Made by a program: the position numbers and the translations under genes
Part shown: positions 31,004 to 33,570 of the stretch, piece after piece
Numbering within the stretch: position 1 is the stretch's first letter
Layout of the letters: each line of letters opens with the position of its first letter
Notes under the pieces: generated by a model
Databases searched by the model: none
What the model was told of the DNA's origin: nothing
What the model saw: only the letters and a program-made list of their open reading frames with translations
NCBI GenBank assembly: GCA_035268685.1
Contig: DATFKK010000159.1
Location: forward strand, 1-36,219
Direction of reading: 5' to 3'
Source of the DNA: Candidatus Krumholzibacteriia bacterium
GTDB taxonomy: Bacteria; Krumholzibacteriota; Krumholzibacteriia; JAJRXK01
DNA length: 36,219 nucleotides

Positions 31004-32647
<1,644 letters not shown>

Positions 32648-32715
32648 CCCCGGCCGCGACGGTCTCGGACACCGGTCCCGGCCGTCCCGGCCTCCGGTGT
32701 CCGGGGTGTGCCCCG

Positions 32716-32747
32716 GAAGCCCGTCCCCACGCGTGGGGGCGGGCTTC
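32716..32747 (+). terminator. Rho-independent terminator of groESL
   Basis: GAAGCCCGTCCCCA (32716-32729) pairs with TGGGGGCGGGCTTC (32734-32747), 14 bp with one T-G wobble and a CGCG loop, followed by TTC. It is the strongest terminator-like hairpin in the window. It is 69 nt after the groEL stop. Confidence 0.8.
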
Positions 32748-32797
32748 TTCGTGGGTGGGGGGGCACGGTGGGCGTCGTCACCGGGCGGTGTCGGCTG

Positions 32798-32823
32798 GCG
32801 TTGACGGCGGGCGTTGACGGCGG
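32798..32823. repeat. Tandem 13-mer, two perfect copies plus a decayed third
   Basis: GCGTTGACGGCGG occurs at 32798-32810 and again at 32811-32823; GTGTTGTCGG follows at 32824-32833 as a partial third copy. It lies in the gene-free stretch between groEL and the truncated esterase. Confidence 0.7.
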
Positions 32824-32868
32824 GTGTTGTCGGCCGGTGAAACCATTCCTCGAAATGCCGGGTTTCGG

Positions 32869-32954
32869 GTTGTCAGCGGCCACGGGATGACAACAGCGAA
32901 TGTCAGCCCCCAGGGACTGACATTTCGCTTCGTCAGCTCCAGCCGACTGACAAT
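32869..32954. repeat. Array of three phased 26-bp palindromes (TGTCAG-N10-CTGACA)
   Basis: Three inverted repeats with 8-bp arms and 10-bp centres, joined by 4-bp linkers (period 30): GTTGTCAG/ATGACAAC (32869-32894), AATGTCAG/CTGACATT (32899-32924, perfect), TTCGTCAG/CTGACAAT (32929-32954). The centres differ (CGGCCACGGG, CCCCCAGGGA, CTCCAGCCGA), whereas the arms are conserved. The regular period and conserved arms suggest binding sites for a dimeric regulator, or a repetitive palindromic element. The region 32648-33006 holds no convincing gene otherwise. Confidence 0.75.
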
Positions 32955-33006
32955 CCTGCACCCAGCTTTTTCGAATGTCTTCGCACGCCGCCCGAGCGTC
33001 CGCTCC

Positions 33007-33570
33007 ATGTCGAGGTGCACCCTGCGACTGCTCTCGGGTCACTCCTACGGAGGGGTGCTCGTGACCCACGCGCTGACCCGCAGACCGGGGCTCTTCCGGG
33101 CCTTTCTCGCACAGAGCCCCTATCTGGCCGCGCCGATCGCCGAACCCCTGCTGGTCGGTCCGCACGATGGGTTGGTGGCGTTCTTCCGGGAGCGCTGGCC
33201 GCTTCCCGTGGAGCTTCTGTCGGGCGGAGGGTCGGGGGCGTTCGCCGCGCACCTCGATCGCCTGGAGAACGAACTCGGGTATCCCGTGCGCTACAGCGAG
33301 GGGGCATTCCAGCGGGCGGCCCAGGGACTGCTCAACGGTGGCGACGTGAAGGGCGCGGCCGAGGCGGCGGGGCTCTACGTCGACCACCATCCGCGCTCTC
33401 CGGTCGCCCACTTCCTGCGCGGGGCCGCTCTGGCTTCGGGAGGCCAGCGCGAGGCGGGCATCGAGGCCATCGAGAAGGCCATCACCCTCTTCGACGCCGA
33501 CCCCGACCCCTCGCAGAGACCGCTGCGAGCGAACATGCAACGCGTGTTGGGGCAGTTGCGAGGGGATTGA
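33007..33570 (+). pseudogene. Truncated alpha/beta-hydrolase (esterase) with TPR tail
   Basis: Remnant of a COG2819/esterase-D-like hydrolase fused to tetratricopeptide-like helices. The nucleophile elbow GHSYGG (residues 11-16) comes almost at the start, followed by VLVTHALTRRPGLFRAFLAQSPYLAAP as in the family. Intact members have roughly 130-150 residues before the elbow; here that part is missing, and the sequence upstream is the palindromic array. The segment that should carry the catalytic His also looks deleted (after NELGYPVRYSEGAFQ). The C-terminus keeps a TPR-like stretch (AAEAAGLYVDHHPRSPVAHFLRGAAL). ATG 33007 has no good ribosome site; an in-frame ATG at 32824 runs through the repeats. 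It is probably inactive, unless it is a short TPR protein. Confidence 0.6.

What the first reader, a model, noticed from the sequence alone, without database searches (positions are those of the whole stretch)
32869..32954. Three phased 26-bp palindromes with a 30-bp period
Seen: arms TGTCAG/CTGACA conserved across three units while the 10-bp centres and 4-bp linkers vary, with the middle unit perfect over 8 bp per arm. A 30-bp period is close to three helical turns, so all sites face the same side of the DNA. This suggests cooperative binding by an unknown dimeric protein, an attachment or recombination site, or a repetitive palindromic element. No neighbouring intact gene obviously uses it as an operator.
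Basis: seen in the sequence. Interest (0 to 1): 0.55.

Follow-up and report, generated by a model that had tools for sequence, protein, structure and literature searches.

The report
Dispersed triple-palindrome intergenic repeat element
A roughly 175-base palindromic DNA element containing three evenly spaced protein-site-like palindromes is repeated eight times between genes of this one bacterial species; it resembles known small mobile repeats, but its recognition half-sites have stayed unchanged while the rest has drifted.

Summary
It is not a local oddity. The triple palindrome is the core of a ~175-bp element (about 32818-32994) that is itself one long imperfect inverted repeat and occurs 8 times in this genome, always between predicted genes and always with exactly three units (30-bp period; 31 in one copy). 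It is absent from 79 other genomes of the phylum by pattern and from 57 by covariance model. No single or paired units exist elsewhere in the genome. Across copies the 27 GTCAG/TGAC columns are invariant while 34 of 101 other columns are (7 copies), so the half-sites are constrained. No GTAG foot and no Y1/RAYT transposase, so it is not a classical REP; no target duplication or mobilising partner was found. Best reading: a species-restricted MITE-like (ERIC/YPAL-like) foldback element whose three phased palindromes form a recognition array for an unknown dimeric DNA-binding protein, possibly its recombinase. The mechanism is inferred, not shown.

The parts
32818..32994 (.). whole repeat element (approximate ends; homology between copies falls to background about 30 bp left and 17 bp right of the 129-bp core)
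32847..32975 (.). 129-bp core used for covariance model R1; folds as one long hairpin (z -7.5)
32870..32893 (.). palindrome unit 1, TTGTCA(G)...(A)TGACAA
32899..32924 (.). palindrome unit 2 (central), AATGTCAG-N10-CTGACATT, dyad centre of the whole element
32931..32952 (.). palindrome unit 3, CGTCAG-N10-CTGACA
32847..32869 (.). left outer arm, complementary to the right outer arm
32953..32975 (.). right outer arm
32976..32994 (.). right end TGTCTTCGCACGCCGCC, shared by most copies; its reverse complement begins GGCGGCGTG, resembling the left end
32782..32834 (+). 13-bp tandem repeat (CGGGCGTTGACGG, 4.1 copies) running into the left end of the element
31004..32647 (+). groEL (Cpn60_TCP1); its 3' end is about 170 bp left of the element
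33055..33570 (+). weakly coding downstream ORF (an open frame runs back to 32824); GHSYGG motif, read as a truncated esterase fragment (by eye, no family match above cut-off)

Best explanation
It is a species-restricted, low-copy, MITE-like foldback element of about 175 bp that spread to eight intergenic sites. Its core is an array of three 20-26-bp palindromes with invariant half-sites GTCAG/TGAC at 30-31-bp period, nested inside one long inverted repeat. Shown: copy number, intergenic sites, obligatory triplet, symmetry, invariant arms, absence from relatives. Inferred: the half-sites are recognised by a dimeric DNA-binding protein of this genome, three dimers lying roughly on one face of the DNA, and this protein is most likely the recombinase/transposase, or a host factor it needs, that moved the element.
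For: 8 copies, 7 found by BLAST without use of the motif and the same 8 by covariance model (the model was built from all 8). Sharp homology edges against unrelated flanks. All 19 units at 1 mismatch or less in 4.59 Mb lie inside these 8 arrays, none alone. 0 of 79 phylum relatives by pattern; 0 of 57 by model above noise, best 18.8 bits against 97.9-143.1 for the copies. None of the 8 overlaps a gene predicted by codon usage. Arms 27/27 invariant against 34/101 other columns in 7 copies, Fisher 4e-11 (columns of related copies are not independent). Long-hairpin pairing: 15 of 44 pairs with changes on both sides, 0 of 500 shuffles as many. All 8 copies fold better than 200 shuffles each, z -4.2 to -11.5.
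Against: No target-site duplication, no terminal similarity to the three DDE_Tnp_1 loci, no Y1 transposase, no clean empty site. Copies are diverged (pairwise 65-95%, C129 49-56%), so no recent movement is shown. Non-arm sequence of C129 is only marginally like the rest (3 of 1000 shuffles as good): it may be an independent array and not a copy. The structure scored was derived from the same alignment.
Confidence: 0.5

Rival explanations
1. A set of fixed binding sites for a chromosome-organising or regulatory dimer (nucleoid protein, centromere-like or operator site). The triple palindrome is kept by selection at each site, and the duplication history is secondary.
For: Arms invariant in all 24 units. 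C129 keeps arms, triplet and period while its other sequence is nearly unrelated, and lies between divergent genes upstream of an OEP/HlyD/AcrB efflux operon. Only 8 sites in the genome.
Against: Homology extends well beyond the palindromes, over ~175 bp, in 7 copies. 7 of 8 copies lie by a gene 3' end and only one is in a divergent promoter region. No regulator gene recognised beside the copies by Pfam.
Confidence: 0.25
2. An RNA-level element: the long hairpin at mRNA 3' ends protects, processes or terminates transcripts, as proposed for ERIC, NEMIS and BIMEs.
For: 7 of 8 copies beside a 3' end, 4 between convergent genes. Strong folding in all 8. Paired changes fit the long hairpin and not three separate hairpins.
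Against: An RNA stem does not require the same arm letters in every copy, yet the arms never vary. No terminator-like site in 32600-33100. C172a and C172b fold mainly as separate hairpins. No expression data.
Confidence: 0.15
3. A classical REP/BIME of the GTAG (RAYT-moved) or CGTC superfamily.
For: Short intergenic palindromes in a group; Planctomycetota genomes hold GTAG-GTCAGGC...GCCTGAC-CTAC arrays of similar period.
Against: No GTAG foot; GTC of the TGTC/CGTC stretch is paired here whereas the CGTC tag is unpaired (PMC3733652). No Y1_Tnp in this genome against a match in 6 of 6 genomes tested whose records are Planctomycetota with such arrays. Units never occur alone.
Confidence: 0.04
4. 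A protein-coding palindromic insert like Rickettsia RPE: a 10-residue repeat read in frame.
For: One + frame (VSxxxxLT repeats) is open through the triplet of all 7 thirty-bp copies, and in the window it runs on into the downstream ORF.
Against: Variable columns by codon position are 22/43, 18/45 and 26/44, no clear third-position excess. Arms are invariant at every codon position. The 31-bp period of C129 breaks the frame. All copies lie outside predicted genes.
Confidence: 0.04

Closest known systems
YPAL / RU-2 of Yersinia (168-bp palindromic repeat)
   Same: Size, palindromic, intergenic, not A+T-rich, no TA termini (PMC2229807, parts 1-2 of 3 read)
   Different: YPAL makes 3-26-bp target duplications and is abundant; here none found, 8 copies, three phased palindromes with invariant half-sites
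ERIC/IRU and Correia/NEMIS
   Same: 100-200-bp intergenic foldback repeats with long stem-loops
   Different: They have TIR with TA ends and target duplications (PMC2229807, parts 1-2 of 3 read); no such ends here
GTAG REPs with RAYT (Planctomycetota arrays seen)
   Same: Groups of GTCAG-containing palindromes at about 30-bp period (the search pattern demanded this)
   Different: GTAG foot, near-identical units of varied number, Y1-type transposase in the genome; none of these here
CIR elements of Caulobacter
   Same: ~110-bp intergenic repeats carrying a conserved protein-recognition motif (PMC2229807, parts 1-2 of 3 read)
   Different: CIR motif is the methylase site GANTC in a two-arm structure shared between genera; here TGTCAG/CTGACA triplets in one species

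Membership tests
Bacterial MITE (ERIC/NEMIS/YPAL kind) | small (100-200 bp), multi-copy, mostly intergenic | tested here: met
   ~175 bp, 8 copies, 0 of 8 overlap a predicted gene
Bacterial MITE (ERIC/NEMIS/YPAL kind) | inverted repeat / long stem-loop from end to end | tested here: met
   half-to-half alignment beats the best of 200 shuffles in all 8 copies. In several copies the aligned stretch covers the core, not the outermost ends
Bacterial MITE (ERIC/NEMIS/YPAL kind) | target-site duplication | tested here: not met
   no consistent flanking direct repeat in 7 copies (C129 left out); ends are fuzzy and copies old, so decay is possible
Bacterial MITE (ERIC/NEMIS/YPAL kind) | termini shared with an autonomous transposon of the genome | tested here: inconclusive
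   three DDE_Tnp_1 loci show no shared ends; other transposase families not searched
GTAG REP / RAYT system | GTAG at the foot of the palindrome | tested here: not met
   alignments of all 8 copies
GTAG REP / RAYT system | REP-associated tyrosine (Y1/HUH) transposase in the genome | tested here: not met
   PF01797: 0 in G000; genome is a draft of 99.33% completeness
CGTC REP superfamily | unpaired terminal CGTC (or TGTC) tag, 8-9-bp stem, 4-5-nt loop, CCA-like tail | tested here: not met
   GTC lies inside the paired arm in all 24 units; features taken from PMC3733652
Operator array of a dimeric regulator | binding by a cognate protein | not testable with these tools
   needs EMSA, DAP-seq or pull-down

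The most novel reading that the evidence does not exclude
The triple palindrome is a dedicated nucleoprotein site of an undescribed dimeric protein of this lineage, either a transpososome assembled on three phased dimers or a dispersed centromere-like/organiser site. It arose at least twice in the genome (C129 and the other seven) and is held letter-for-letter by selection.
Probability: 0.2. Interest if true: 0.6.

Novelty: new variant of a known kind. Interest (0 to 1): 0.4.

Why it matters
Small palindromic repeats are common, but few show a fixed number of phased sub-palindromes whose half-sites are invariant while everything around them drifts. That gives a concrete bait (TGTCAG-N10-CTGACA, three times, 30 bp apart) for finding the protein that moves or uses such elements, an open question for most bacterial MITEs (the 2007 review PMC2229807, says there was no experimental support yet for how they transpose).

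Tried and rejected
REP/RAYT membership was rejected: no GTAG foot, no Y1_Tnp. An Rfam family was rejected: only sub-threshold chance hits in the window stretch and none at gathering score in six loci. A phage or plasmid source found no support: no match in plasmids or phages and no viral-contig hit of the pattern. Target-site duplication: none. Autonomous partner among three DDE_Tnp_1 loci and a C197 18-bp match: none. Coding repeat: no codon-phase signal.

Three separate hairpins as the conserved structure: no covariation excess (2 pairs with both-side changes, shuffled mean 3.3), whereas the long hairpin shows it. Paired changes could also come from quasi-palindrome repair, so they do not prove an RNA or single-strand role.

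Empty sites: groEL in G001, G002 and G003 and the lipoyl-synthase-like gene in G001 and G003 have relatives, but aligned DNA ends near the gene and the neighbours differ, so no clean empty site was obtained. The Planctomycetota arrays were fetched by a pattern that demands GTCAG/TGAC at this spacing, so their likeness and their E-values under model R1 are partly by construction and are not taken as homology.

C129 was found by pattern only, not by BLAST from the window; counts are given with and without it where that matters. Paper searches; none listed a family described as this one, but only openly licensed papers are held.

Full report
Observation. The three units are at 32871-32892, 32901-32922 and 32931-32952, exactly 30 bp apart. 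Only the middle unit is perfect; it extends to 8 bp per arm. Units 1 and 3 have one arm mismatch each against TGTCAG/CTGACA. Single units are not beyond chance in the window (11 of 100 shuffles reach 3), but the phased triplet is: none in four simulated genomes, none in the 57 other genomes or the 79 others.

Copy number. The own genome is a 4.59-Mb draft in 202 contigs; the window is contig C159. A 181-bp BLAST query finds seven loci with E of 8.5e-16 or better, the window included: C159, C189, C191, C101, C107 and two on C172. The motif pattern adds C129. A covariance model built from all eight recovers the same eight (97.9-143.1 bits on the better strand), each on both strands as expected of a palindrome, and nothing else in this genome. 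It gives two noise-level hits (18.8 and 18.1 bits) in 57 other genomes. All 19 units within one mismatch lie inside the eight arrays: there are no solitary units at that threshold.

Anatomy. Aligning copies with 250-bp flanks shows sharp edges: homology runs from about 30 bp left to about 17 bp right of the 129-bp core and then drops to background. The element is a foldback: the left half aligns to the reverse complement of the right half above the best of 200 shuffles in all eight copies. All eight fold better than every one of 200 shuffles, z -4.2 to -11.5; the window and five others mainly as one long hairpin, the two C172 copies mainly as separate hairpins. Pair counts favour the long hairpin (15 of 44 pairs with changes on both sides, 0 of 500 shuffles as many) over three separate hairpins (2 of 31 pairs, 448 of 500 shuffles as many). 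The long-hairpin structure came from the same alignment, so this is supportive and not independent.

Constraint. In the seven BLAST-found copies the 27 arm columns (GTCAG and TGAC, three times) are all invariant, against 11 of 33 centre, 8 of 20 linker and 15 of 48 outer columns (columns with a gap left out). With C129 the arms stay 27 of 27 and the rest fall to 17 of 101. C129 was chosen by the motif, so its arms are conserved by the way it was found. Its non-arm sequence agrees with the consensus in 41 columns, with an alignment score reached by 3 of 1000 shuffles, so it is either a very old copy or an independent array. Its linkers differ from the others but are perfectly complementary to each other.

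Context. By codon-usage gene calls (my own simple scorer) none of the eight overlaps a gene. Four lie between convergent genes, three between co-directional genes, and one (C129) between divergent genes upstream of an OEP/HlyD/AcrB operon. Seven of eight have a gene 3' end beside them. In the window the element sits about 170 bp after groEL and before a weakly coding ORF that I read by eye as an esterase remnant (no Pfam match above cut-off).

Distribution. The strict pattern is absent from 79 other phylum genomes, BLAST finds nothing in plasmids or phages, and the looser pattern finds nothing in viral contigs. The looser pattern over GTDB-species contigs gave 42 stretches. About half are Planctomycetota arrays of GTAG-GTCAGGC...GCCTGAC-CTAC hairpins or close variants. 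Six of six such genomes tested hold Y1 transposases (the seventh genome of that call, Planktomarina, has a different array and none), while the window's genome holds none. These arrays fit the GTAG REP superfamily (PMC3733652, passages and section 6 read) and are a different thing from the window's element.

Mechanism. Most likely this is a species-restricted MITE-like foldback repeat whose three phased palindromes are a recognition array for a dimeric protein, perhaps its recombinase. Dispersal is inferred from copy number, sharp edges and absence in relatives. Protein recognition is inferred from invariant half-sites, symmetry and constant spacing. Missing evidence: no target duplication, no partner transposon among those tested, no empty site, no binding data.

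Comparison. Closest are YPAL, ERIC and NEMIS (PMC2229807, parts 1 and 2 of 3 read; MITE review PMC10969869, passages read). It shares size, symmetry and intergenic siting; it lacks demonstrated target duplications and TA ends. I file it as a new, species-restricted variant of the palindromic-repeat kind, not as a proven MITE.

Noticed in passing
L031, L035, L037-L039, L043, L045-L047, L051, L058, L059, L069 and others: Planctomycetota MAGs carry arrays of GTAG-GTCAGGCTTTCCAGCCTGAC-CTAC hairpins at about 30-bp period, with Y1/RAYT-type genes in all six such genomes tested.
   Followed up: partly
L055:1277-1356: A contig labelled Solirubrobacterales carries the same GTCAGGCTTTCCAGCCTGAC array as the Planctomycetota; transfer or a misbinned contig.
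   Followed up: no
L067:1110-1189: A Planktomarina MAG has one three-unit GTCAG...TGAC array at 30-bp period with no Y1 transposase match in that genome; possibly an operator.
   Followed up: no
window 32782-32834: 13-bp tandem repeat CGGGCGTTGACGG runs into the left end of the element; copy C172b has a similar doubled GCGCGTTGTCGG at its left end.
   Followed up: partly
L019:7742-8974: Two copies in the same orientation flank a single 224-259-aa gene without Pfam match, a possible small cassette.
   Followed up: partly
window 33007-33570: Possible truncated esterase (GHSYGG motif by eye) with a weak TPR-like tail directly after the element; weak coding score.
   Followed up: partly
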